IMG/VR virus record: IMGVR_UViG_3300044630_003720
Coordinates: 1-20,607 of that record
Source: a virus
Length of the DNA stretch: 20,607 bases
Reading direction: 5' to 3' (one strand)
How positions within the stretch are numbered: position 1 is the first letter of the stretch; each line of letters opens with the position of its first letter. This document shows, one piece after another, positions 363 to 17,186 of this stretch. A model generated the notes under the pieces. It saw nothing but the letters and a program-made list of their open reading frames with translations. It did not search any database and was not told the DNA's origin. Position numbers and translations under genes: made by a program.

Positions 363-1724
363 TTAGTTTGTTTTTTTACTATTAAAATACCCAGAACCTT
401 CTTTACTATTAATTGTTATAATACCATTAATAGATTTGGTTTGATACTTTTTTGTTGCCTTATCAATATATTTTTTTTGAAAAGTTACATCAAAAGTATT
501 TGGTTTTCTTTCTGTTCCATTTTCTTTTTTTACAATTATTTTAACATTTTTTTTGTCATCATATAAGCTTAAGTTCAAATCACCAATTTCAATTTCATTA
601 ACTTTGGCAGAATACACCCCAAAAGAATCAAAAGTTATAGGCTTACCATTTTCATCTTGGTCAAAATTTATGGTATCACCTCTTAAAGTATATGTTAAAT
701 CTTTATTAGGTATGAAATTGTCAAAAACATCACCCAAAGTACCTTTAACTTTTGATATTTCATAGTTTCTAATAATTTGTTGTGCTGGCACTATACCAGT
801 ACCTTTAGGATTTTCTCCTTTTATTGCACTCATAATCATATTTAAAAGACTAGGTTGTTTATAGAAAGCTTTTTTTAATATTGGGTCGTTTATAATAGCG
901 TCCATAGTTTGTTTAGCATTTTTTTTAGTATTTTTTTTAGCATCAACCGTAACAGGTTCTGATGTATCTTGTTTAGGTTCTTCTTGTTTAGGTTCTTCTT
1001 TTTGCCCAGAATCTTTATCAACAAAAAATTTTTTAACTTCTATTTTGAATTCTTTATCATCTGCTTGTGATTTAAACATGGTAAAACCATCTTCTTCATA
1101 AAAAGGGTTATCCGTCAAATCAATTTTTAAAATGATTGGGTTTGTTGACTTTGATGTTGCTTGTTTCATTGAAACAACAACATATTCTTCTTTTTTTTCT
1201 TGAACAATACCATCCCATTTGAATTTTGAATCAAAATGGATTTCATCATCCACTTGAACATTTTTAAGCTCATTGTAGTATTGCTCTACAAAGTTAGAAC
1301 CAGTTTTATCCAAATCATGTTCTACTTCATAACTATCCATTTGATGACCGCTTTTTAAACTTTGTTCATCAGCAAATACCTTTAAACCTACAACGTTGTT
1401 TATTACCAAGGTACCACATTTTCCAAAATTTACTTCAAACTTATTTCCATAAATCATCGTATCAAAACGTGCATCAATACTACAACCTTTTGTTTTGGTT
1501 CCTTTATTGATATCCTTTATCATTTTATGACCGTTTATCTCTTCAAATTTGAAATCATATTCGGTATCGCTACCACCTTTAATTCTTTGAACAACTGAAA
1601 AGAATTGGGCTTTAGGGTTATCATTGAAAAATACTGATAGTTTTTCTGGACTAGGTGCTTTCCTAACCTCATCAATATAATTTTCTATTAGCTTAAACTG
1701 TTCCTCGGTCAATATTATTTTCAT
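363..1724 (-). CDS. Phage structural-region protein of unknown function, 453 aa
   Basis: I do not recognise this family. The protein opens MKIILTEEQFKLIENYIDEV, an amphipathic N-terminal segment whose KI.(I/L)T.EQ core also begins the 379-residue protein at 6126-7265. Residues 1 to about 235 are mixed alpha/beta. Around 240-270 there is a Lys/Glu/Gln/Pro linker with repeated EEPKQ, then an Asn/Lys segment, and the C-terminal third is again soluble alpha/beta, ending in a Lys/Thr-rich tail. There is no signal peptide or membrane segment. It sits between the baseplate genes and the probable tape measure, so a baseplate or tail-associated role is likely but inferred from position. It has its own ATATTTATA box and AAAAAAAGAC leader upstream, and a terminator separates it from the preceding gene. 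The ATG at 1724 fits that leader. Confidence 0.75.
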   Translation of the reverse strand: MKIILTEEQFKLIENYIDEVRKAPSPEKLSVFFNDNPKAQFFSVVQRIKGGSDTEYDFKFEEINGHKMIKDINKGTKTKGCSIDARFDTMIYGNKFEVNFGKCGTLVINNVVGLKVFADEQSLKSGHQMDSYEVEHDLDKTGSNFVEQYYNELKNVQVDDEIHFDSKFKWDGIVQEKKEEYVVVSMKQATSKSTNPIILKIDLTDNPFYEEDGFTMFKSQADDKEFKIEVKKFFVDKDSGQKEEPKQEEPKQDTSEPVTVDAKKNTKKNAKQTMDAIINDPILKKAFYKQPSLLNMIMSAIKGENPKGTGIVPAQQIIRNYEISKVKGTLGDVFDNFIPNKDLTYTLRGDTINFDQDENGKPITFDSFGVYSAKVNEIEIGDLNLSLYDDKKNVKIIVKKENGTERKPNTFDVTFQKKYIDKATKKYQTKSINGIITINSKEGSGYFNSKKTN

Positions 1725-2107: not shown

Positions 2108-3356
2108 CTCCAGGAGTCTTAACCGTAATATTCATGTCAATACCGCATTCAATGCTGGTCACATAATCACTGAAAGCTTTGCCATCACGAATTCTAATGG
2201 TATTCACGTATTCTTTGATAAAGTTCCTATCCCTATTTCCATTGACCTCAATAATCAAATGTTCCATTGTGTATGTAGCCATGTTATTTACTGGTACCTT
2301 ATTTTCTTTGTCCTGTTCCAACTTGGTTTCAATGATATCAGAATCACCACAAGTTAACATTTTGAATTTTATAACGTCTTTTGAACTAGGAAAAACAAAA
2401 TCAAATAACCCTTCAGCATCTGGTTCAGCACCTAAATTCTTGGTCTTAAGCTCATTTAAATTTAATTCTGTATCAAAAGGAACATCGTTTTCATCAAATA
2501 AGGTAACTGGATACATCTCACCATAAGCTGTAGCTCTAAGCCAAAGCATAATAGAGTTACGGTCACCAACCAAAAGGTCTTTGTATCTTAAGTCTGATTC
2601 AAGGATTTTTCTATTCATAAGAATTTCCAAAAATTCACCACTTTGTAACAAGTTAGGACTTGTAAGAATATTTTCATCAGCGGTAGTCATATACGAAACC
2701 CTAACGTTGGGTTTTTTCATTTTATAGGTTTTTCCTTGAGAAGGCAAAGGAATAACATCAAACGCTGAATTATAGTTAGGTTGGCTCAATTCAATAATAT
2801 AAGGGTCGATACTTGAACTAACTTGACCGTAATTTTGCGGTTGTGTAATAGGTTGTTGAACTGGTGTTTGGTAATTATTTGTTTGCATAGTTTGATTGTT
2901 ATTTTGATTAATTGTCTCTACTTTTTTAACAGAGGCTTCTTCATATTGTTTTTGATAACTTTGTGTTTGATTTGAATTATTAGCCAAACTTTCATCACGA
3001 ATACGCATTTGTTCTTCAGATTTTTTTCTGATATCCAAGATTTCTTGTTCATATTTTGATACAACCCTAGGTGGTGGTGTTTCAGCCAATGATGGGTCTT
3101 GAACAATACCTTGTTGGTTGTACGCATTTACTTGTTGTTCAGTTCTTCTTCTCATCATTTCTACAGCATCAGCATGTCCTATTGGTATCTCATTAGGGAC
3201 CATAGAATTCATATAAATTTCTTGAGTCGCAGCCAATTTTTCAGCTTCAAAAGCAGCTAATCTAGCTCTTTCATCAGCAGCTTCTTTTTGTTCCTTGGTA
3301 GGCAATGCATTAGTAGGTGTTGTATTAGTAGGGAATACGTTGGGTTTTCTATCCAT
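2043..3356 (-). CDS. Baseplate protein with C-terminal T4 gp26/gp51-family domain
   Basis: The protein has 437 residues. The first 190 or so are low complexity, rich in Ala/Glu then Gln/Asn, and probably flexible. From about residue 200 there is the pattern I associate with the T4 baseplate-hub family (gp26 type): LPSQGKTY, then VRVSYMTTADENIL, an acidic helical region, and MLWLRATAYGEMYPV, followed by a beta-rich end. T4 gp26 is about 208 residues, so this one carries an N-terminal extension of comparable length. The role would be in baseplate hub assembly in the infected cell. The start at ATG 3356 opens the MDRKPNVF sequence; the sense-strand near-match TATATTTATT lies about 35 bases upstream. 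It lies after the tube gene's terminator and overlaps the next gene by 65 bases. Confidence 0.7.
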   Translation of the reverse strand: MDRKPNVFPTNTTPTNALPTKEQKEAADERARLAAFEAEKLAATQEIYMNSMVPNEIPIGHADAVEMMRRRTEQQVNAYNQQGIVQDPSLAETPPPRVVSKYEQEILDIRKKSEEQMRIRDESLANNSNQTQSYQKQYEEASVKKVETINQNNNQTMQTNNYQTPVQQPITQPQNYGQVSSSIDPYIIELSQPNYNSAFDVIPLPSQGKTYKMKKPNVRVSYMTTADENILTSPNLLQSGEFLEILMNRKILESDLRYKDLLVGDRNSIMLWLRATAYGEMYPVTLFDENDVPFDTELNLNELKTKNLGAEPDAEGLFDFVFPSSKDVIKFKMLTCGDSDIIETKLEQDKENKVPVNNMATYTMEHLIIEVNGNRDRNFIKEYVNTIRIRDGKAFSDYVTSIECGIDMNITVKTPGGGSIETFLPLNLNFFWPNIRV

Positions 3357-3390
3357 TTTAAAAACGTTTAATAAATTGTTATAACTTTCT

Positions 3391-3400
3391 AATAAATATA
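3391..3400 (-). promoter_or_regulatory. ATATTTAT-type promoter-like box for the baseplate gene
   Basis: The minus strand reads TATATTTATTAGAAAG, one base away from the ATATTTATA box seen before other structural genes. It lies between the tube-gene terminator and the baseplate ATG at 3356, and is weaker than the other copies. Confidence 0.35.
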
Positions 3401-3439
3401 ATGGTTAGAATTTTTTTGTAAATGATTGCGCTTAAAATA

Positions 3440-3481
3440 AAAAAGGTTATTTATTGTCGCAAAACAATAAGTAACCTTTTT
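3440..3481 (-). terminator. Bidirectional terminator hairpin after the tail tube gene
   Basis: A stem of about 18 bp, AAAAAGGTTATTTATTGT against its near-perfect complement, encloses a 6-base loop. The single imperfection is U-G when read on the plus strand and A-C on the minus strand. Runs of A and T flank the stem on both strands. It follows the tube gene stop at 3519 and precedes the next gene's promoter box. Confidence 0.8.
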
Positions 3482-3518
3482 GTATAAAATTTTTAAATGA
3501 TTGATAATCAAATACTTC

Positions 3519-4007
3519 CTAAAACAACAATATAGCTCTATCAAAACGCAATGTAGCAGTAATTTCTGCAATACCATCGTCATCCATTGATAAATCACCG
3601 AATCCTACGTTGGTAAGCATTGTACCGTCTAGTAACCATTTTTCAACAACCACACCAGTTGGGTCAAGCATTTCAAGCTCTACTGGACGTTTGTAACCAG
3701 CAGCATAACCTTGACGACCTGTGATAGATTCAGAGTGAAGACGAACCCACTCCATTATTGCTTGAGAAGCAGATGGACCAATTGGGTCACGGAAAGTAAC
3801 ATCAATTGCTTCCCATGTAAAACGTCCAATAACCCATGTAGAAGTGTTAAGGAAAGGGATTTCTACTTCATTTTGTGTAATTGAAGGTCTTGATGCAGAT
3901 GCCAACCACCATTGTTGAATCCCCAAATCAGAAGGGAATGTAATAAGCCAACGATTCTTTTTCTTAGGTTCGTAAGGCAAGGGCATTTTCATTAATAAAT
4001 CAGCCAT
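3519..4007 (-). CDS. Tail tube protein (T4 gp19-like)
   Basis: The product is 162 residues, against 163 for T4 gp19. It shows the tube-protein layout: an N-terminal segment with NRWLITFPSDLG, a central beta region (WVIGRFTWEAIDVTFRDPIG), the helix ASQAIMEWVRLH, then a beta hairpin and a C-terminal strand ALLF-like end (RFDRAILLF). Tube subunits stack as hexameric rings inside the sheath and form the channel for DNA. The gene is followed by a strong hairpin terminator. The only ATATTTATA box upstream lies about 60 bases before the ATG, giving a longer leader than the other late genes. The sheath gene, normally its immediate neighbour in T4, is separated here by a 3.3-kb block holding an OmpA-like gene and two inverted plus-strand genes. 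Confidence 0.85.
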   Translation of the reverse strand: MADLLMKMPLPYEPKKKNRWLITFPSDLGIQQWWLASASRPSITQNEVEIPFLNTSTWVIGRFTWEAIDVTFRDPIGPSASQAIMEWVRLHSESITGRQGYAAGYKRPVELEMLDPTGVVVEKWLLDGTMLTNVGFGDLSMDDDGIAEITATLRFDRAILLF

Positions 4008-4013
4008 ATTTTC

Positions 4014-4044
4014 TTGTTTTTTAAAGTATTTATTAGTATATTTG
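4014..4044 (+). promoter_or_regulatory. Bacteroidetes-type promoter for the EDxHD endonuclease gene
   Basis: TTG at 4014-4016, a 20-bp spacer and TATATTTG at 4037-4044 match the Bacteroidetes housekeeping pattern (TTG/TTTG, about 19-21 bp, TAnnTTTG). Transcription would begin near 4050 and leave a leader of about 50 bases before the ATG at 4101. It overlaps the upstream region of the oppositely oriented tube gene. Confidence 0.55.
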
Positions 4045-4066
4045 CAATACTAAAATTATTGTTTAA

Positions 4067-4075
4067 TATAAATAT
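4067..4075 (-). promoter_or_regulatory. ATATTTATA promoter-like box for the tail tube gene
   Basis: The minus strand reads TTATATTTATATTAAAC, pointing at the tube gene, with its ATG about 60 bases away. It shares the box with other structural genes but lacks the AAAAAGAC leader. Confidence 0.4.
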
Positions 4076-4100
4076 AAGAAAATACAAAATAATTCAATAA

Positions 4101-5534
4101 ATGAGTAAAAAAGAAAAGTTTATAGTAAAGTGTGAAAATAAATTTGGTAATCAGTATGATTACTCAATGAGTGATTATATTGATTCTAAAACCAAGATTG
4201 ATATATTATGTAATAAACATAATATAATTTTCAAACAAACACCAGCAGAACATTTGAGAGGTAAACTTGCTTGTAATTTATGTACTAGAAACCCAAAAGT
4301 TAATTCTGATTTTTTTATCAATAAAGCAAAATCAATTCATGGAGACAAATATGATTATTCAAAAACCATCTATGTTGATTCAACCACCAAGGTTAAAATA
4401 ATATGCAAACAACATGGTGTTTTTGAGATGTTACCAAATAATCATTACAAACAAAATTGTCCAAATTGTTTTAATGAAGATAGATTTTTAACAACTGAAT
4501 TGTTTATTGATTTGGCTAAAAAAATACATGGTGATAAATATTGTTACTTAAACTCAATCTACACCAATTCCAAAAATAGAATTAAAATATCTTGTTTAGA
4601 ACATGGTGAGTACGAACAAATACCTAATGACCATTTATCTGGCAAGGGGTGTCCAAAATGTGGTTTTAAATATAACAACACTGAAAACGAAATCAAAGAT
4701 TTCATTAAAGGTTTTAAATTATCATATATCGAAAACACCAAAAATATTATATCACCACTTGAATTGGATATTTATATCCCAAGTCATAACTTAGCAATTG
4801 AATTTAACGGGTTATATTGGCACTCTGAAATATATAAATCAAAAAATTATCATCTAAATAAAACACTAGAATGTGAAAAACAAGGAATACAATTAATACA
4901 TATTTTTGAGGATGAATGGCTATACAAAAAAGACATCGTTAAATCAAGATTGACAAATATATTTGGAATGACACCAGAAAGAATATACGCTAGGAAATGT
5001 CAAATTAAAGAAGTTACACATATTGATAGTAAAAAATTTTTAAATATGAATCATATCCAAGGTCAATTAAACTCATCAATCAGATTGGGGTTATATTTGG
5101 ATGATGAACTAGTTAGTCTTATGACATTTGGTGGTCTTAGAAAAGCATTAGGTACATCCCAAAAAGATGGTTCATACGAACTATTAAGATTTTGCAATAA
5201 ATTAAACACAACTGTTATTGGTGGTGCCAACAAACTACTTAAAAACTTTATAAACTTATACAAACCAAAGGAAATTATCAGCTATGCTGATAGGCGATGG
5301 TCAATAGGAAACCTATATATAAAATTGGGATTCGACTTAAACCATTATAGCCAACCAAATTATTTTTATGTAATAAATGATAAAAGAAATAACAGGTTTA
5401 ATTACAGAAAAGACGTTCTAATTAAAGAAGGTTTTGATAAAAATAAAACCGAACACGAAATAATGTTGGAGAGGAAAATATATAGAATTTATGATTCTGG
5501 GACTATATGTTTTAAATTAATGGTAAAAAAGTAA
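4101..5534 (+). CDS. EDxHD (Vsr-like) homing endonuclease with three zinc-ribbon-like repeats
   Basis: The product is 477 residues. Residues 1-195 hold three copies of a module of about 60 residues: (K.IHGDKYDYS) – YV.S.TKVKI.C..HG – P..H....CP.C. The second and third end in a CxxC pair and look like DNA-binding zinc ribbons; the first ends CNLC. Residues 200-275 form the nuclease core: ELDIYIP (E221, D223), LAIEFNGLYWHSE (E234, H241) and HIFEDEW (H267, D271), the pattern of EDxHD enzymes such as I-Bth0305I, related to Vsr and PD-(D/E)XK nucleases. Residues about 285-477 are a second domain (LGLYLDDELVSLMTFGG, ELLRFCNKLNTTVIGGANKL), often seen C-terminal in phage endonucleases of this type and possibly GNAT-like. 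It would cut a target in related phages and spread itself. It runs against the surrounding structural genes and has a host-type promoter. Confidence 0.85.
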   Translation: MSKKEKFIVKCENKFGNQYDYSMSDYIDSKTKIDILCNKHNIIFKQTPAEHLRGKLACNLCTRNPKVNSDFFINKAKSIHGDKYDYSKTIYVDSTTKVKIICKQHGVFEMLPNNHYKQNCPNCFNEDRFLTTELFIDLAKKIHGDKYCYLNSIYTNSKNRIKISCLEHGEYEQIPNDHLSGKGCPKCGFKYNNTENEIKDFIKGFKLSYIENTKNIISPLELDIYIPSHNLAIEFNGLYWHSEIYKSKNYHLNKTLECEKQGIQLIHIFEDEWLYKKDIVKSRLTNIFGMTPERIYARKCQIKEVTHIDSKKFLNMNHIQGQLNSSIRLGLYLDDELVSLMTFGGLRKALGTSQKDGSYELLRFCNKLNTTVIGGANKLLKNFINLYKPKEIISYADRRWSIGNLYIKLGFDLNHYSQPNYFYVINDKRNNRFNYRKDVLIKEGFDKNKTEHEIMLERKIYRIYDSGTICFKLMVKK

Positions 5535-5562
5535 AATAAATTTGGTTTTACTGATTTTTTTT
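5530..5562 (+). terminator. Weak terminator after the EDxHD endonuclease gene
   Basis: AGTAAAA (5530-5536) pairs with TTTTACT (5546-5552) across a 9-base loop and is followed by eight T residues (5555-5562). The stem is A/T-rich, so efficiency is doubtful. It overlaps the stop codon of the endonuclease and the promoter of the next gene. Confidence 0.4.
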
Positions 5563-5572
5563 ATTACCTTTG
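5541..5572 (+). promoter_or_regulatory. Bacteroidetes-type promoter for the CAP-domain gene
   Basis: TTTG at 5541-5544, a 20-bp spacer and TACCTTTG at 5565-5572 match the full Bacteroidetes consensus (TTTG, about 20 bp, TAnnTTTG). The predicted start of transcription is about 5579, leaving under 10 bases before the ATG at 5588. Because the -7 box covers an upstream in-frame TTG at 5570, that TTG cannot be the start. Confidence 0.75.
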
Positions 5573-5587
5573 TATAAATTAAAACAA

Positions 5588-6139
5588 ATGAAAAGATTAT
5601 TAACATTTACACTTCTTATTTTATCATTGACCGCTTTAGCTCAAGATATTGAATTGATGAACAATATAAATACATACAGAGCATATAACAATAAACCAGT
5701 TTTATCTTGGTCAAAAGACGCAGCCGATATAGCCAAAGGCCAAACAAGTGTGATAATCTCACAAGATAGTCTTAGTCACTCACATTTGGCACCAGAAATC
5801 GCTACAATGGGTACGACATTACCAGCAACACAAGATAGTAAAGATAAATTTGCAGAATTTTTGAAATCAACATTCAATATTGACTATGTTGACCCTAAGA
5901 ATGATAGCGATGTTATTAAAATGGTAAAACTATATGTTATCTATATGTTTGACAAATCACCAAAACACAAAGCAATTCTTTTGGGTGAATACAAATACGT
6001 TGGGTTTGATTTGGTCATTAAAGATATCAAACACAAACCAAACACCTTAACCATCAACGGAAAGACAATTGTTTTTAAAAATTTTTCTGATTATTACAAG
6101 GTAATGTTTTATTCAGTATTTGACTTTAAAACTTCGTAA
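5588..6139 (+). CDS. Secreted CAP (SCP/PR1-like) domain protein
   Basis: The product is 183 residues from ATG 5588. It begins with a signal peptide: KR, a hydrophobic run to about residue 15, and a likely cut after TALA, leaving Gln at the mature N-terminus, as is common in Bacteroidetes. The rest fits the CAP fold: LMNNINTYRAYNNKPVLSWS (N..R....KPVL.W), the helix DAADIAKGQTSVI, SHSHLAPEI with candidate metal-binding His, and KSPKHKAILLGEYKYVGFDL, matching the usual S..H...L.....VG pattern. CAP proteins are secreted; bacterial members are poorly understood and have been linked to cell-wall or lipid binding. In a phage it could act on the host envelope, but this is inference. The gene is oriented against the late genes, has a strong host-type promoter, and its end overlaps the convergent 379-residue gene by 14 bases. 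It looks like a cargo gene expressed by host polymerase. Confidence 0.75.
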   Translation: MKRLLTFTLLILSLTALAQDIELMNNINTYRAYNNKPVLSWSKDAADIAKGQTSVIISQDSLSHSHLAPEIATMGTTLPATQDSKDKFAEFLKSTFNIDYVDPKNDSDVIKMVKLYVIYMFDKSPKHKAILLGEYKYVGFDLVIKDIKHKPNTLTINGKTIVFKNFSDYYKVMFYSVFDFKTS

Positions 6140-7265
6140 AACAACTTACTGAACCTCTGTGTTTTGATTTGTGATGTTTACAACTAACTTTTTTGTTTTT
6201 AAAAGTAACTTTGTTTTTTTTATCTGAAGATATAAAAACCTTGGCCAATTCAAACCTATATTTTTTAATAATATCCTCTGGTTTAGGGTTTTCTTCTGGT
6301 AATTCTTGTTTGTATTCTACAACCATCTTTATTTTAACATAACGATATTCAGATGTCTTATCCCTCAACGCATTTAAAGCAACCTTATCGTCTTTAACCT
6401 TTAAAAATTGACTTGTACTGACAACATCAGAACCATTGTTAGGTATTTCTCTATGCGTTATAGTAACATTGCTATCCAAATCAGTAATTAAATTAGTTAC
6501 ACTTTTTGTTCTTAAACTAGCCAATTGTATATTACCTGTTGGGTCTTCATCAGTCTTAAATTTGAGAACCCTTTCAGCGTCTGTCGATGATTCAACATTG
6601 ATTGAAATAATTCTACCACCAGAAGCTTGAATAGAATCCATTGCTGAAGTAATTACGTTAACACCATTAGAACTAAGTGTATACCCACCAGTGATAAATA
6701 AATTATCATTACCCAACTCTAGTTCTACCGTATCTTTGATTGTTACTATTGTCTTTGTGGTATTTCCTTTTATTGTATCTGAACTTATTTCAGATTTTTT
6801 TAAAGCATAACCCCTAGCCAATTCAACATCTAAACTTGTCAAATTATCAACAACTCTTGTGCTAACATTATAACTTATCTTATTATCAGCAGCAACCTCG
6901 TTAAATTTATTTTTTATTTTTTCAGCGTTTTTGGCCAACAAAGTATCTGGATTTTTCATCCCTTTTTCTTCATAGGCTTTTGCCAATTCACGTGTTTTAT
7001 TTTCATCTTCAAGGGTTGCTTTTATTTGAGACATGGTTTGTTCGTCTTTAAGAGCATTTTGAGCCATTGTTTTATTTATCCCAGTCAAACCAACACCCAT
7101 AAGCAGAGCAACACCTAAAAGAACTTCTTTCCAGCCTTCTTCCAAAAGTTCTGGACCCAACTCTAGGTTTTCATTTAAAACGTTACCAGAAGCGTTTAAA
7201 CGGTTTTCTTGTTCACGCAATAGAATAGATTTATATTGCTCAGATGTTATTTTTATCTTGGTCAT
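6126..7265 (-). CDS. Structural-region protein with hydrophobic segment and C-terminal OmpA-like domain
   Basis: The product is 379 residues. The N-terminus MTKIKITSEQYKSILLREQ resembles that of the 453-residue protein. At about residues 40-65, EEGWKEVLLGVALLMGVGLT is a hydrophobic stretch that could insert in a membrane or pack in a helical bundle. A helical region follows to about 150. Residues about 180-335 resemble an OmpA-like domain: LFITGGYTLSSNG, IISINVESSTDAE (compare the GhTD segment), NIQLASLRTKSVTNLI (compare N..LS..RA..V...L), and EYRYVKIKMVVEY (compare NRRVe). OmpA-like domains usually bind peptidoglycan, but the canonical Asp and Arg positions are only partly kept here. The Lys-rich tail contains CKHHKSKH and a second Cys. 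A promoter-like box precedes the gene; its 3' end overlaps the CAP gene by 14 bases. The neighbouring sheath gene suggests a tail-associated protein. Confidence 0.6.
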   Translation of the reverse strand: MTKIKITSEQYKSILLREQENRLNASGNVLNENLELGPELLEEGWKEVLLGVALLMGVGLTGINKTMAQNALKDEQTMSQIKATLEDENKTRELAKAYEEKGMKNPDTLLAKNAEKIKNKFNEVAADNKISYNVSTRVVDNLTSLDVELARGYALKKSEISSDTIKGNTTKTIVTIKDTVELELGNDNLFITGGYTLSSNGVNVITSAMDSIQASGGRIISINVESSTDAERVLKFKTDEDPTGNIQLASLRTKSVTNLITDLDSNVTITHREIPNNGSDVVSTSQFLKVKDDKVALNALRDKTSEYRYVKIKMVVEYKQELPEENPKPEDIIKKYRFELAKVFISSDKKNKVTFKNKKVSCKHHKSKHRGSVSCFTKF

Positions 7266-7278
7266 GATTTCTTTTCTA

Positions 7279-7287
7279 TATAAATAT
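7279..7287 (-). promoter_or_regulatory. ATATTTATA promoter-like box for the OmpA-like gene
   Basis: The minus strand reads ATATTTATATAGAAAAGAAA, then TC and the ATG at 7265, with 13 bases between box and start. It lies directly after the sheath gene's terminator. Confidence 0.55.
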
Positions 7288-7298
7288 TCATATAAAAC

Positions 7299-7322
7299 AA
7301 AAAAGCTCCCGTTTGGGAGCCT
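7299..7322 (-). terminator. Rho-independent terminator after the sheath gene
   Basis: On the minus strand GGCTCCC-AAAC-GGGAGC is followed by six T residues. The 6-bp G/C-rich core, 4-base loop and T run are classical. It follows the sheath stop at 7344 and precedes the next gene's promoter box. Confidence 0.85.
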
Positions 7323-7343
7323 TTATGTTTATTTTTAAATAGA

Positions 7344-10193
7344 TTAGATGTTATTGAATGAAGCACCAGTGTTCATGATAACAAACTCAATTTGGATGAA
7401 TTCAAGACTTCTTGTTGGTTTTAAGAAGATTTGACCAGTCAATTGATTTCTGTCGATGTCTTCTGGGCTGCTTGAAAGAACAACACGGAAATCAGTCAAA
7501 CCTCTTTCAGTTCTGATGTTATCCAAGATTGGATTAACCAGTGCCAAGAATTGATTTCTAACAACTGAATCGTTTTGTTCGAACAACAATCTGATAGATA
7601 CAGCAGAGATAAGTTTTCTAGCTTGTAACAACAATCTTCTAACGTTGATTCTGTTAAGAGCTGTTTCTTTAACTTGAAGAGTTTTATTACCCCAGATTTT
7701 GATACCATCAGATGTAAAGGTAGCGATTGGGTTAATTCTATTTTCATAAAGAGTATCTCTTTCTGCATGTGTAAGTTTTTTACGAGCTTGGATAGCGTCA
7801 ACATCACCACGTTGGATACCAGCAACCGCAAACCATGGGAATGCGATATTGTCAGTCAATGCAATGTTACGTACTACATCTCTAGTTGGTGGAACAAAAA
7901 CCAATACATTGTTTTCAGCGTCATTGATTTGAACCCATGGCCAATAAGTACATGTATAGTTGCTATCAAATTGGTCAGTCAAGTAATCAGCTGCTTCTTG
8001 TGCGGTAAGTATTTCACCATTATAATAATCTGGTGTGGTTACGATATACAATGAGTCAGCCCTTTCTTGTTCAACCATTTCAATTGAAGCTTCAACTAAA
8101 TTAGTGTTGTCTATTGTGTCAATCCCTGGAGTTGCAAACACGTTTATGTTTACTGCTTCTGGGTTTCTAAATGTCCAGATTGCTTCTAAGTATGCGTAGT
8201 AATCAGAGTTGATACCTAAGTCACCATTGGTAAGAGTTTTGTTTTTGAACGCACCACTAGTTAAACCAGCTTGACCCCTAGTTCCATTGATAATGAAACT
8301 GTCAATGTTGCTTCTTCTTGTTCTATAAACATCCCAACCATCAAAACCACCGTAAGGTACAAATGTAAATTTACGAGCATAAAGTTTTTCGTAGTCAGTA
8401 CCATTCAAACCAGCATCTGTTCTAAATTGAGCATTACCTGTATCAAACAAGAATATTGGGCTGTAAGTACCACCACTAGTATTAATTGTAATAAAAACGT
8501 TGTCAATTGTAACACCAGTAGCGTCAACGTCCATGTGGAAACCTTTGGTCATACCAGTCCACACATCTGGATTAGTTGTTGTAGGTTCACCTTTGTAATC
8601 AAAGAAATCGGAATCAATACCTACTGTTTCAGAAAGACCTAAATAATATTTACGTTTGTTTTCAAAAGTACCATAAGTTTTTTTGTACATAACTGTTGGG
8701 TCAAGCACACTTGAATTGCTATTGGTTTGGTAATTACGAATTGGGAAACCAACGAAACCAGATGGGAATGCATCACTAGTATCTGAAGTATCATCCATTT
8801 CAATCAACACGTATGAAGATTTAGAAACGTAAACACCATCAGTAGTACCAATTTTTCTACCAACATAATTAGCTGAAGTTGGGTCCATTGTACAACGAGT
8901 GTAAGCTTCCAATACTACTGGAGATGCATCAGTATCGTAGAAACTTCTAATATGGATATCAAATTCTTTAGAATCTGGTTTGATATTCATAATAGAAATC
9001 TTGAATTGTTCATTTGCAGCATTACCATCAGAAATAGTAATGAATCTAAACAATCTTAATACTTTATTACCACGCAATTCTGATACAACATAAGGAGTTA
9101 TAGCTGATTTAAACTCTTGTAAATAATCAGAGAAAGTTTCATTGTAATTTATTGGTGATTGTTTGATACCTTTGATTTTACCATCAGCATTTAAACTTCT
9201 AAATAAGTTGTCATATAATTCCTCTACAAACAAAGCAGTTTGACCATCTTGCGCACCTCTACCCAATACTTTAGGCAAGTAGTTTCTTTGTGTTCTATCC
9301 ATGGAAACGTTGTAATCAAATAATCCTTGAAGAGTTGATTTACCACTCAAAGAGAATGTACCTAACGGGTCATTGGTTGCAGCTGAAAACGCTGGGTTGA
9401 ATATAATACCAGTTGAACCTGTAACTTCAAATGCTGGTAATTGAGTCGACACATCAACTACACCCCTAGAACGCAATAACGCTACTAGTTTATTTTCAAC
9501 ATCACTATATGATGAACCAGAATAATAAACAGTCACACCAGTTGTTGTACCAGTAATTGATGTTGTCATACCAACACCTGTATAACTTGTTGCATTAACA
9601 TATAAATTGAAAGATGCACCTGTAAAACTAGAACCTATCTTGATAAATGAAGCACCAATACTTGTACTAGAACCAGTTGAAGCTGTTCCTAAATAAGATA
9701 ACGCATCTGTTAAGTTTCCAGCGTTAATCAAAGATTGAACCAATGAATCAGAAGATACAAGATTTGTAACTGTACCAGCAGATGTAGCTGAGAAGCTAAT
9801 CAATGGTGAATATGATGCACCACCACCAGTTGTGCCACTAGTTGCGGTATTTAATGCCGAATCGAGAGTAATACCCCATGCCAAACCAGCATCGTAACCA
9901 GAAAAACCCAATACTCTAGTTACGAATAATTGGTTTGATTGAGAAAGATATGATTTTGCTATGTAAGGTAATTCATATTGTGGAAACCCAGTATCTTTTA
10001 CTTTAGTAGCGTTTAAACCACCGAAGAAAGATTGGAATTCACCATAATTGCTAATAAAAATTGGTTGGAAAGCTGGGCCAATTGTGGTTTCACCTACCAA
10101 TCCAAGGGTCGTTACACCTACTTGTCGTGTAACAAATGTTAAGTCTTTTTCTGAGGTATAAACTCCTGGACTAACGAATACTTGTGTTGCCAT
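7344..10193 (-). CDS. Contractile tail sheath protein (T4 gp18-like), enlarged
   Basis: The product is 949 residues, against about 659 for T4 gp18. The N-terminus VFVSPGVYTSEKD is the usual sheath opening (SPGVY..E.D), followed by VGVTTLGLVGETTIGPAFQP. The C-terminal part has the sheath core: NRINPIATFTSDGIKIWGNK, VRRLLLQARKLI, an NDSVVRNQFLALVNPILDNI helix and a final strand SLEFIQIEFVIMNTGASF. Sheath subunits surround the tube and contract at infection. The extra length lies mainly in a Ser/Thr/Gly-rich region at about residues 105-290 and in middle domains to about 650, presumably on the outer surface. Its likely promoter box lies about 45 bases upstream, and a strong terminator follows. 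Lack of the tube gene immediately downstream is unusual for a T4-type cluster. Confidence 0.92.
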   Translation of the reverse strand: MATQVFVSPGVYTSEKDLTFVTRQVGVTTLGLVGETTIGPAFQPIFISNYGEFQSFFGGLNATKVKDTGFPQYELPYIAKSYLSQSNQLFVTRVLGFSGYDAGLAWGITLDSALNTATSGTTGGGASYSPLISFSATSAGTVTNLVSSDSLVQSLINAGNLTDALSYLGTASTGSSTSIGASFIKIGSSFTGASFNLYVNATSYTGVGMTTSITGTTTGVTVYYSGSSYSDVENKLVALLRSRGVVDVSTQLPAFEVTGSTGIIFNPAFSAATNDPLGTFSLSGKSTLQGLFDYNVSMDRTQRNYLPKVLGRGAQDGQTALFVEELYDNLFRSLNADGKIKGIKQSPINYNETFSDYLQEFKSAITPYVVSELRGNKVLRLFRFITISDGNAANEQFKISIMNIKPDSKEFDIHIRSFYDTDASPVVLEAYTRCTMDPTSANYVGRKIGTTDGVYVSKSSYVLIEMDDTSDTSDAFPSGFVGFPIRNYQTNSNSSVLDPTVMYKKTYGTFENKRKYYLGLSETVGIDSDFFDYKGEPTTTNPDVWTGMTKGFHMDVDATGVTIDNVFITINTSGGTYSPIFLFDTGNAQFRTDAGLNGTDYEKLYARKFTFVPYGGFDGWDVYRTRRSNIDSFIINGTRGQAGLTSGAFKNKTLTNGDLGINSDYYAYLEAIWTFRNPEAVNINVFATPGIDTIDNTNLVEASIEMVEQERADSLYIVTTPDYYNGEILTAQEAADYLTDQFDSNYTCTYWPWVQINDAENNVLVFVPPTRDVVRNIALTDNIAFPWFAVAGIQRGDVDAIQARKKLTHAERDTLYENRINPIATFTSDGIKIWGNKTLQVKETALNRINVRRLLLQARKLISAVSIRLLFEQNDSVVRNQFLALVNPILDNIRTERGLTDFRVVLSSSPEDIDRNQLTGQIFLKPTRSLEFIQIEFVIMNTGASFNNI

Positions 10194-10239: not shown

Positions 10240-10248
10240 TATAAATAT
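10240..10248 (-). promoter_or_regulatory. ATATTTATA promoter-like box for the sheath gene
   Basis: The minus strand reads CCTAATATTTATAATAAAC in the sense direction of the sheath gene. The distance to the ATG at 10193 is about 46 bases, and the leader is A-rich. Confidence 0.5.
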
Positions 10249-10295
10249 TAGGTTTTATTCAAAAGTAGTGCCCATCAAAAAGATATATTTAATTT

Positions 10296-10327
10296 AGTAT
10301 GTTTTTTTTCATACTTTTATCATACTT
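10296..10327. promoter_or_regulatory. CATACT repeats upstream of the ribbon-helix-helix gene, candidate operator
   Basis: AGTATG (10296-10301) and CATACT (10310-10315) form an inverted repeat around eight T residues. A second CATACTT starts at 10321, 11 bp after the first. Ribbon-helix-helix proteins often bind short repeated half-sites near their own promoter; a role as operator is inferred from position only. Confidence 0.35.
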
Positions 10328-10342
10328 ATTATAAAAGACACT

Positions 10343-10495
10343 ATGAAAAGGGATAAGAATATAAAAATAACCACAAAAACACATGAAATACTTAAAAAGT
10401 ATTGTGAACAAAATGGTTTAAAGATGTTTTCTTTTGTCGAAAAATTGATTCGCGATATGTGTATATCTAAGAAAGATATATATGGTGAAAATTAA
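10343..10495 (+). CDS. Small ribbon-helix-helix (Arc/MetJ-type) DNA-binding protein
   Basis: A 50-residue protein starts at ATG 10343 and ends with TAA 10493-10495. It begins MKRDKNIKITTKTHEILKKY. The pattern is a basic N-terminus, a short strand (IKITT), helix A (THEILKKYCEQNG), a turn, and helix B (MFSFVEKLIRDMC), which is the size and order of the ribbon-helix-helix fold. Such proteins dimerise and place the paired strand in the DNA major groove, mostly as repressors. The ATG is preceded by ATAAAAGACACT, close to the AAAAAGAC leader of several structural genes. It is the only gene on this strand in the stretch between the sheath and fibre genes. It may control nearby phage transcription; the target is unknown. 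Confidence 0.65.
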   Translation: MKRDKNIKITTKTHEILKKYCEQNGLKMFSFVEKLIRDMCISKKDIYGEN

Positions 10496-16085: not shown

Positions 16086-16093
16086 ACTTATTT

Positions 16094-16165
16094 CTAAAAA
16101 AAAAAATCCTCTTCGGAGAAGAAGCGGTTAATTCTAGTTATTGGTGTAAATTTTTTATTTTCCAT
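16094..16165 (-). CDS. Out-of-frame 5' part of the gp14-like gene
   Basis: ATG 16165 follows an AAAAAGAC leader and opens a frame of 23 codons (MENKKFTPITRINRFFSEED then FFF) that ends in TAG at 16096-16094. The T run at 16096-16106 has 11 T on the minus strand; one extra T or a -1 slip there reads on as LEIS and joins ATG 16085 in frame. The segment therefore looks like the true start of the neck gene. Its first 13 codons are copied at the start of the GIY-YIG endonuclease. The ATG also overlaps the last 11 bases of that endonuclease. Confidence 0.5.
   Translation of the reverse strand: MENKKFTPITRINRFFSEEDFFF
16096..16106 (-). other. 11-T homopolymer, possible slippery site or frameshift
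   Basis: On the minus strand GGA is followed by 11 T and then AGAAATAAG. Zero-frame reading stops at TAG. A -1 slip, transcript slippage adding one U, or a 12-T sequence joins the two gp14-like frames. A 9-T tract would also restore the frame. Confidence 0.5.
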
Positions 16166-16173
16166 GTCTTTTT
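16128..16173. repeat. Direct repeat copy B: start of the gp14-like gene
   Basis: This copy matches 17149-17195 over 47 positions with four substitutions and one single-base gap. It contains the AAAAAGAC leader, ATG 16165 and the first 13 codons of the gp14-like gene. The promoter box next to it has decayed to ATACATA, compared with ATATTTATA beside copy A. Confidence 0.85.
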
Positions 16174-17186
16174 ATGTATTTATGTATTAGTTTATTACTA
16201 CAACCATATATTTTCCCAATTTGTACTAATGATAAACCTTTTAGTTTATAATTGTTTATTTCAACAATATCAAGATTATATTTATTTGATGTTTCTTTTT
16301 TAATATTATATTTTTTAATGTTATCACTAATAACTGTTCTATGACAACCATATAAATCAGCTATTTCATATATTTTTAAGTTTTTATATAAATATAATTC
16401 TTTTAGTTCATCCTCATTAATATCATATTTAAAATTTCCATTATTTTTGCCTTTAAAAGTACCTTCTTTTTTAACTTTTTCACTTCTTTTAAATAATACT
16501 TCTTTAGATAAAGATTTTCCAAACATTGGGTTATTTTCACCAGAATTATTCTGACTCATTTTCATTCTTGTAACATCACTATGTACTAAACCTAATGAAT
16601 ATGTGTTGTTTTTATGCAAATCACTTAACATTTTTTTTGTTTTATCTGAATGTTTATAACCAACAGCTCTATTGTTTCCAATCATATTTTCAGACATTTT
16701 TTTCTTTACTTTTTCAGACCACTCTTCATTAGACCATAATTTAGTTAACAATTCTTTTTTATTTTTTATTTGTTCATCATTAAGTTTACGACCTTTATGT
16801 GTTTTAGATATTTTAGCTTTAGCTTCTTGTGTGTGTGTTTTACCAAACATATGGTTAATACCTCCACCATCAGCTACATTTAATAATTTATTTGTTTTTT
16901 CTTTATTTTCTTTAATTTCTTTTATCTCTGCATTTAACAAATTCTCATAAGTATCGTATTTTCTTATTAATTTTATTATAGGTTTTTTATTATTTGATTT
17001 TAATTCTTTAAACCATAAAGCTATTTTACCATTTGTTGGGTTCCTTAAATGACCAGACAATCTTGTTGATAATAAACCAGTGGTTATACCAATGTATCTT
17101 AATTCACCATTATATGGACAATAAAGACCATACAATTTGAATTCTTTATTAATTCTAGTTATAGGAGTAACCTTTTTATTTTCCAT
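16155..17186 (-). CDS. GIY-YIG homing endonuclease with NUMOD3 and HTH motifs, fused to a captured leader
   Basis: The product is 343 residues. Residues 1-13 (MENKKVTPITRIN) are not part of the nuclease; they copy the start of the downstream gp14-like gene (one difference, V for F). The GIY-YIG domain runs from about 17 to 100: LYGLY (20-22), YIG (31-33), TRLSGHLR with R42, and the catalytic Glu in NAEIKEI (E87). From about 110 there are NUMOD3-like DNA-binding motifs, MFGKTHTQEAKAKISKTHKG and NPMFGKSLSKEVLFKRSEK, with a related segment between them. The C-terminus has two helix-turn-helix-like units, IYEIADLYGCHRTVISDNIK and LVQIGKIYGCSNKLIHKYIK. It would cut DNA at or near its insertion site in related phages. 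Its stop overlaps the gp14-like ATG by 11 bases, and a promoter box precedes it, so it is expressed with structural genes. Confidence 0.9.
   Translation of the reverse strand: MENKKVTPITRINKEFKLYGLYCPYNGELRYIGITTGLLSTRLSGHLRNPTNGKIALWFKELKSNNKKPIIKLIRKYDTYENLLNAEIKEIKENKEKTNKLLNVADGGGINHMFGKTHTQEAKAKISKTHKGRKLNDEQIKNKKELLTKLWSNEEWSEKVKKKMSENMIGNNRAVGYKHSDKTKKMLSDLHKNNTYSLGLVHSDVTRMKMSQNNSGENNPMFGKSLSKEVLFKRSEKVKKEGTFKGKNNGNFKYDINEDELKELYLYKNLKIYEIADLYGCHRTVISDNIKKYNIKKETSNKYNLDIVEINNYKLKGLSLVQIGKIYGCSNKLIHKYIKRHGK

What the first reader, a model, noticed from the sequence alone, without database searches (positions are those of the whole stretch)
4014..6139. Inverted two-gene island under host-type promoters inside the tail cluster
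The EDxHD endonuclease and CAP genes run against the tail genes and each follows a promoter with the full Bacteroidetes pattern and an exact 20-bp spacer; I found no such promoter before the structural genes. This suggests two expression classes: host polymerase reads the island early or constantly, while the structural genes use the phage box. The island sits between tube and sheath genes, normally neighbours, and looks like a moron (cargo) carried with a homing endonuclease.
Basis: partly seen in the sequence, partly recalled or inferred. Interest (0 to 1): 0.55.

Follow-up and report, generated by a model that had tools for sequence, protein, structure and literature searches.

The report
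Backward early genes inside tail cluster
A large phage that probably infects Bacteroidota bacteria carries two genes running backwards between its tail genes, each with a host-style early switch, and relatives show that they are two separate passengers swapped in and out of one cargo slot rather than one mobile unit.

Summary
Two + strand genes oppose the tail genes: a Hef-like homing endonuclease (HEF, 4101-5534) and a predicted secreted CAP protein (5588-6139). Each follows TTG-N20-TAnnTTTG (4014-4044; 5542-5572). Bare pattern counts in the window are at chance (5 found, 6.9 expected), but comparison is decisive. In 91 sheath-to-tube slots, 40 of 65 distinct antisense upstreams carry this promoter (shuffles 0.8) against 2 of 176 sense upstreams (shuffles 1.6). 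Sense genes instead carry ATATTTATA (78 of 174; shuffles 2.6). In a 205-kb relative the two motifs precede 24 and 22 of 214 ORFs, never the same one; scanned host-type genes include DNA polymerase, primase, SSB and exonuclease. "Two expression classes, island early" is well supported by sequence; no RNA was measured. "CAP carried with the endonuclease" is not supported: CAP lacks HEF in 15 of 19 CAP slots, HEF lacks CAP in 12 of 16 HEF slots, and HEF takes the place of a small gene (c4) never found with it. CAP instead tracks the OmpA-like half of the convergent gene (19 of 19 CAP slots; 0 of 14 short-form slots). Parts are known kinds; the arrangement is a new variant.

The parts
4014..4044 (+). 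Host-type (Bacteroidota primary sigma) promoter of HEF: TTG, N20, TATATTTG; lies inside the tube gene's leader
   Evidence: the same N20 layout at the tube-adjacent HEF of L010, L011, L015
4067..4075 (-). ATATTTATA box of the tube gene; lies inside the HEF leader
3519..4007 (-). Tail tube gene (slot border)
   Evidence: phrog_4542 E 2.9e-25
4101..5534 (+). HEF: free-standing Hef-like / EDxHD-type homing endonuclease, 477 aa, intact ORF
   Evidence: phrog_559 E 6.5e-133; PDB 3r3p E 0.0034 over residues 195-285; 7-row alignment
5542..5572 (+). Host-type promoter of CAP: TTG (in TTTG), N20, TACCTTTG
   Evidence: 6 of 6 distinct CAP upstreams of this family have it
5588..6139 (+). CAP: predicted exported CAP-domain protein, 183 aa
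   Evidence: PF00188 22.3 bits against cut-off 21.1; alignment A1; signal-like N-terminus by eye
6126..7265 (-). om6126: sense gene convergent with CAP; C-terminal half has an OmpA-like (peptidoglycan-binding) fold
   Evidence: model pLDDT 69, best Foldseek hit 4rha E 1.2e-5
7279..7287 (-). ATATTTATA box of om6126
7301..7324 (.). Hairpin after sheath; strong terminator on the - strand, weaker on the + strand, the first + strand candidate after CAP in the stretch scanned
7344..10193 (-). Tail sheath gene (slot border)
   Evidence: phrog_23 E 2.3e-58
10240..10248 (-). ATATTTATA box of the sheath gene

Best explanation
The stretch between sheath and tube is a cargo slot in a clade of large uncultivated phages that probably infect Bacteroidota. 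Structural genes run in one direction and have the phage's ATATTTATA box. Cargo genes run in the other and mostly carry the host primary-sigma promoter, which at least some of these phages also use genome-wide before replication genes. In this window the slot holds two unrelated passengers. One is a free-standing EDxHD/Hef-type homing endonuclease, which sits where relatives have a small antisense gene (c4) and has an early-class promoter inside the tube leader. The other is a probably secreted CAP-domain protein, which lies tail to tail with, and is inherited together with, the OmpA-like half of the neighbouring gene. Likely working (inferred): host RNA polymerase reads both early; the endonuclease cuts HEF-free alleles near the tube leader and spreads by repair; the CAP protein goes to the envelope of the infected cell before virion genes are switched on, where it may change the cell wall or exclude later phages. 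Shown by sequence: genes, orientation, promoter classes, independent gain and loss, CAP-OmpA linkage. Not shown: transcription times, cleavage, export, CAP activity.
For: Promoter classes: 40 of 65 antisense against 2 of 176 sense upstreams, robust to thinning; box 78 of 174 sense against 4 of 65 antisense; in G001 24 host-type, 22 box, 0 both of 214 ORFs; 7 of 10 scanned host-type genes have named hits: DNA polymerase, primase, SSB, exonuclease, a polymerase, a kinase-like ATPase, an RNA-binding protein; box genes include tube, connector, endolysin. Independence: antisense contents of 91 slots, HEF and c4 never together; break points in L095 and L106. CAP-OmpA: 19 of 19, OmpA fold. Consensus TTTG/TANNTTTG in Flavobacterium: PMC6847099, passages.
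Against: 25 of 65 antisense upstreams lack the strict promoter. Three of seven long relatives (G003, G005, G007) show no clear genome-wide excess of the N20 pattern. Box genes also include a DnaB-like helicase, an HNH endonuclease and an epimerase, and 4 of 10 had no hit, so the box is not strictly 'late'. The antisense Arc-like gene lacks the host-type promoter (1 of 30). CAP fold not confirmed by model (pLDDT 56, best CAP hit E 0.64). Loci are related, so counts are not independent. No evidence of recent HEF transfer: HEF is never more alike than the flanking sheath. Host not tested.
Confidence: 0.72

Rival explanations
1. One reading: one moron, CAP, carried and mobilised as a unit with the homing endonuclease.
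For: CAP and HEF are adjacent and co-oriented in the window, L015, L089 and L090.
Against: CAP without HEF in 15 of 19 CAP slots, HEF without CAP in 12 of 16 HEF slots; separate promoters; break points lie between them.
Confidence: 0.07
2. The host-type promoters are constitutive rather than early: cargo is read throughout infection, or in a carrier state, by unmodified host polymerase.
For: The promoter is the host primary-sigma type (PMC6847099, passages); sequence cannot give timing.
Against: In G001 the same promoter class precedes replication genes and never shares an upstream with the box, which suggests a temporal division.
Confidence: 0.18
3. CAP is a partner of the OmpA-like gene product in the virion or in lysis rather than an early host-modifying cargo; the antisense orientation is incidental.
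For: CAP occurs only beside the long OmpA form, 19 of 19, with touching or overlapping 3' ends.
Against: CAP has its own host-type promoter and lacks the box used by virion genes; six long-form slots lack CAP.
Confidence: 0.2
4. The promoter matches are chance matches in AT-rich DNA.
For: The whole-window count is at chance level, 5 against 6.9.
Against: 40 of 65 against 0.8 in shuffles, with one strongly preferred spacer.
Confidence: 0.02

Closest known systems
Free-standing homing endonucleases of T4-like phages (seg, mob, Hef); EDxHD family, I-Bth0305I
   Same: Stand-alone endonuclease gene beside an essential structural gene, multi-domain with an EDxHD-like nuclease region; replaces or displaces a small neighbour
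   Different: In T4, endonuclease-specific promoters are middle (5) or late (2), none early, and antisense segD has no promoter found (PMC2988022, passages); here HEF is antisense in 18 of 18 copies and 11 of 16 distinct upstreams have an early-class host-type promoter
Morons (independently transcribed phage cargo genes)
   Same: Extra gene with its own host-type promoter among structural genes, present or absent between relatives
   Different: No lysogeny was seen or tested; CAP shares its fate with the OmpA half of a sense gene; the slot hosts a series of alternative antisense genes
HEG islands (PMC10448857, abstract and one section)
   Same: Endonuclease genes beside essential genes at borders of genetic exchange
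   Different: Those are long tracts (over 10 kb) flanked by endonucleases; here the neighbouring cargo changes on its own
CAP/SCP (YkwD-like) secreted proteins of bacteria
   Same: Pfam CAP match; the sister family c6 matches solved SCP domain 4ifa at E 2e-6
   Different: Phage-encoded; no close relative among phage records or in a scan of bacterial genomes; c5 is divergent and only just above the cut-off

Membership tests
EDxHD/Hef homing endonuclease | Sequence homology to Hef-type phage endonucleases over the full length | tested here: met
   phrog_559 E 6.5e-133 over residues 3-474
EDxHD/Hef homing endonuclease | EDxHD-type nuclease domain | tested here: inconclusive
   PDB 3r3p E 0.0034 and sub-threshold MTES_1575 E 0.0043; that 3r3p is I-Bth0305I is recalled; catalytic residues were not mapped one by one
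EDxHD/Hef homing endonuclease | Presence/absence at one site between close relatives | tested here: met
   window and L095: HEF against c4 with identical tube; 16 of 91 slots have HEF
EDxHD/Hef homing endonuclease | Cuts the allele that lacks the gene and copies itself in | not testable with these tools
   needs enzyme and crosses
CAP/SCP superfamily | CAP domain sequence | tested here: met
   PF00188 22.3 bits, cut-off 21.1; relative L105 just misses, 19.7; c6 family 42.4 bits
CAP/SCP superfamily | CAP fold | tested here: inconclusive
   model pLDDT 56; CAP structure 4h0a second at E 0.64
Moron | Own promoter, separate from the late operon | tested here: met
   at sequence level only
Moron | Present or absent between close relatives | tested here: met
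   CAP of either family in 19 of 91 slots
Moron | Expressed from a prophage | not tested
   the contig is a 20.6-kb fragment; no lysogeny genes were looked for
One CAP+HEF mobile island | CAP and HEF gained and lost together | tested here: not met
   4 of 91 slots have both; 15 of 19 CAP slots lack HEF, 12 of 16 HEF slots lack CAP

The most novel reading that the evidence does not exclude
The sheath-tube slot is a dedicated site where these phages keep early-expressed envelope effectors (CAP proteins of two families, lipoproteins, other secreted proteins) on the strand opposite to the tail genes, so that host polymerase makes them before the tail cluster is switched on; CAP works with the OmpA-like protein encoded convergent to it, for example to shut out later phages. 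Homing endonucleases follow the same early-antisense rule to parasitise the slot.
Probability: 0.25. Interest if true: 0.68.

Novelty: new variant of a known kind. Interest (0 to 1): 0.5.

Why it matters
It gives a simple, testable promoter code (host-type TTG-N20-TAnnTTTG against ATATTTATA) for a group of uncultivated phages that probably infect Bacteroidota, and it locates cargo genes by strand and promoter. It contrasts with T4, where no homing endonuclease is reported to have its own early promoter (PMC2988022, passages). The CAP-OmpA linkage points to an unstudied envelope function of phage CAP proteins.

Tried and rejected
Chance motif matches: the whole-window count is at chance, so the case had to rest on relatives. 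Sigma-70-type promoters: no excess in 3300-7500 (28 against 25.4). CAP fold by AlphaFold and Foldseek: inconclusive. CAP profile in PDB: no hit. CAP in bacterial genomes: 36 pattern stretches, none confirmed. CAP c5 against c6 by hhalign: only 33 N-terminal columns align (95%), so common descent of the two CAP families is not shown. HEF more alike than its flank between loci: not seen in any listed pair. om6126 in Pfam, PHROGs and PDB by sequence: nothing; the fold search worked. Literature searches for host-type promoters in such phages and for CAP/SCP proteins in phages gave no report of this arrangement in their listings; most subscription papers are not held, so absence from print is not claimed beyond these searches.

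Dropped rows: L093, L094 and L101 (second copies of contigs held under other ids) were left out by hand; loci lacking the sheath C-terminus or the tube, or with a slot over 9 kb, fell out, leaving 91 slots including the window, of 108 loci plus the window. Upstreams cut by a contig end and identical upstreams were dropped before the promoter counts. Slots still include near-identical pairs.

Full report
Where it lies. The window is a whole 20,607-bp virus record, a fragment. By its tail tube, the nearest records among 50,697 phage records are Microcystis phage Mel-JY01 (39.5% identity), Rhodothermus phage RM378 (32.9%) and Flavobacterium phages immuto (31.6%), whereas IMG/VR holds many closer relatives (600 stretches matched, 586 confirmed, the best 80 kept). 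A Bacteroidota host is inferred from the promoter type; it was not tested directly.

The two genes. HEF (4101-5534 +) belongs to phrog_559 at E 6.5e-133. Its nuclease region matches the solved 'Mobile intron protein' 3r3p at E 0.0034, which I recall to be I-Bth0305I, the EDxHD example named in PMC3943268 (passages). CAP (5588-6139 +) passes the Pfam CAP cut-off narrowly. A second, clearer CAP family, c6, occupies the same antisense place in 9 other slots. Both families begin with a stretch that looks like a signal peptide; this was read by eye.

Promoters. [quoted passage not shown] The window has TTG-N20-TATATTTG at 4014-4044 and TTG-N20-TACCTTTG at 5542-5572. Starts predicted from that give HEF a leader of about 52 nt and CAP one of about 11 nt. 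The window-wide count of such patterns is at chance (5 against 6.9). I therefore tested relatives: 91 sheath-to-tube slots, ORFs of 50 aa or more, start at the first ATG. Of 65 distinct upstreams of antisense ORFs, 40 have the pattern with a spacer of 18-22 (shuffles 0.8); of 176 sense upstreams, 2 do (shuffles 1.6). After thinning at 75% identity it is 30 of 54 against 2 of 117; the spacer is 20 in 26 of the 30; a mirrored pattern gives 1 and 0. By family: CAP c5 6 of 6, c10 4 of 4, c6 6 of 8, HEF 11 of 16, c4 6 of 10, c7 4 of 8. Against the rule: 25 of 65 antisense upstreams lack it.

The phage box. Sense upstreams carry ATATTTATA in 78 of 174 (shuffles 2.6) and its core TATTTAT in 132 of 174 (shuffles 16.3); antisense upstreams carry ATATTTATA in 4 of 65 (shuffles 1.7). 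In the window it occurs 10 times against 1.2 expected, 8 of them shortly upstream of a gene in the same direction, and never before HEF or CAP.

Genome-wide. In seven long relatives the N20 pattern, both strands together, stands against its read-backwards control as follows: G001 41 to 9, G004 34 to 3, G006 15 to 5, G002 16 to 10, G003 6 to 8, G005 10 to 11, G007 7 to 5. So the excess is clear in three, slight in one and absent in three. In G001 (205 kb, fetched in 11 pieces), 24 of 214 ORFs have the host-type pattern (spacer 19-21), 22 have the box, none has both. Of 10 host-type genes scanned (of 24), 7 have named hits: DNA polymerase, primase, SSB, exonuclease, a polymerase, a kinase-like ATPase and an RNA-binding protein; one looks DnaJ-like by eye; two match unknown families or, weakly, a membrane protein. 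Of 10 box genes scanned (of 22), tail tube, connector and endolysin fit a late class; DnaB-like helicase, HNH endonuclease and an epimerase do not obviously; 4 had no hit. Host-type thus means mostly early or replication genes; the box class is broader than strictly late.

One island or two passengers? Two. The 91 slots by antisense content: none 42, HEF only 9, c4 only 8, CAP(c6) only 8, CAP(c5)+c4 6, CAP(c5)+HEF 4, HEF twice 2, CAP(c6)+c28+c4 1, others 11, of which one has HEF. The four CAP+HEF slots are the window, L089 and L090 (100% identical proteins) and L015. HEF and c4 never occur together (HEF 16 slots, c4 15). The close HEF-free relative L095 (tube 100% identical) has c4 where the window has HEF; homology stops at about window 5507 and resumes at about 4064. 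L106 (tube 100%, sheath 91%) keeps a divergent HEF split into two ORFs but lacks CAP and the last part of om6126 as one block, about window 5507-6817. Three HEF-free loci (L016, L023, L026) have a HEF-type tube leader with a degenerate -7 or -33 element, which may be scars of HEF loss (by eye).

CAP and the OmpA-like gene. om6126 has no sequence family, but its model finds OmpA C-terminal domains (16 hits at E 0.001 or better, best 4rha at 1.2e-5). CAP of either family occurs in 19 slots, all with the long OmpA form; 6 long-form slots lack CAP; none of 14 short-form slots and none of 52 slots without om has CAP. In most CAP slots the two 3' ends overlap or nearly touch. The simplest reading is that the OmpA half and CAP are exchanged as one block; a joint function in the envelope is possible but untested. 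Relatedness among loci weakens the count.

HEF and the tube leader. In the window the HEF -7 element (4037-4044) and the tube box (4067-4075) lie within 93 nt, each inside the other's leader. HEF is antisense in 18 of 18 copies. In T4, endonuclease-specific promoters are middle (5) or late (2), with no early ones, and for antisense segD no promoter was found (PMC2988022, passages). An antisense endonuclease with its own early-class promoter is thus a different way of not disturbing the tail genes. HEF copies are never more alike than their flanking sheath, so recent transfer is not shown.

Verdict. The moron-with-endonuclease reading should be replaced by two independent passengers in a variable slot: CAP tied to the OmpA-like gene, and HEF in the place of c4. 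The kinds of part are known; the arrangement is a new variant.

Noticed in passing
window 10343-10495 (+), leader about 10250-10342: A 50-aa Arc-like repressor gene, antisense between sheath and the fibre genes, is found in most relatives that cover the place; its leader has conserved repeats of the type AGTATG...CATACTTTTrTCATACTT (possible operator) and not the host-type promoter (1 of 30).
   Followed up: partly
window 16155-17186 (-) and 16086-16170 (-): A NUMOD3 homing endonuclease gene of GIY-YIG look runs with the tail genes, has the phage box, and begins like the start of the next gene (MENKKVTPITRIN / MENKKFTPITRIN), as if it had copied its target's 5' end; the next gene's upstream start runs into a stop after an 11-T run.
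   Followed up: partly
window 6126-7265 (-), 363-1724 (-); many ORFs in L117-L127: Otherwise unlike proteins share an N-terminal motif (about MKxxIxxxqxxxIL.E or MKxxIKxxLRESL), which could be a sorting or cleavage signal.
   Followed up: no
antisense slot families c4 and c7, e.g. L095:11742-12047 and L052:2326-2616: Two small antisense families (about 98 aa and 80-96 aa, c7 with hydrophobic stretches) of unknown function recur in 15 and 8 slots.
   Followed up: no
L010, L035, L036, L037, L039, L042: A second HEF site lies 31-41 nt after the sheath gene; L010 has a HEF copy at each end of the slot.
   Followed up: partly
L106:8057-9495; L044:3064-3384: Decayed HEF copies: split into two ORFs in L106, and only a fragment without an ORF of 50 aa in L044.
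   Followed up: no
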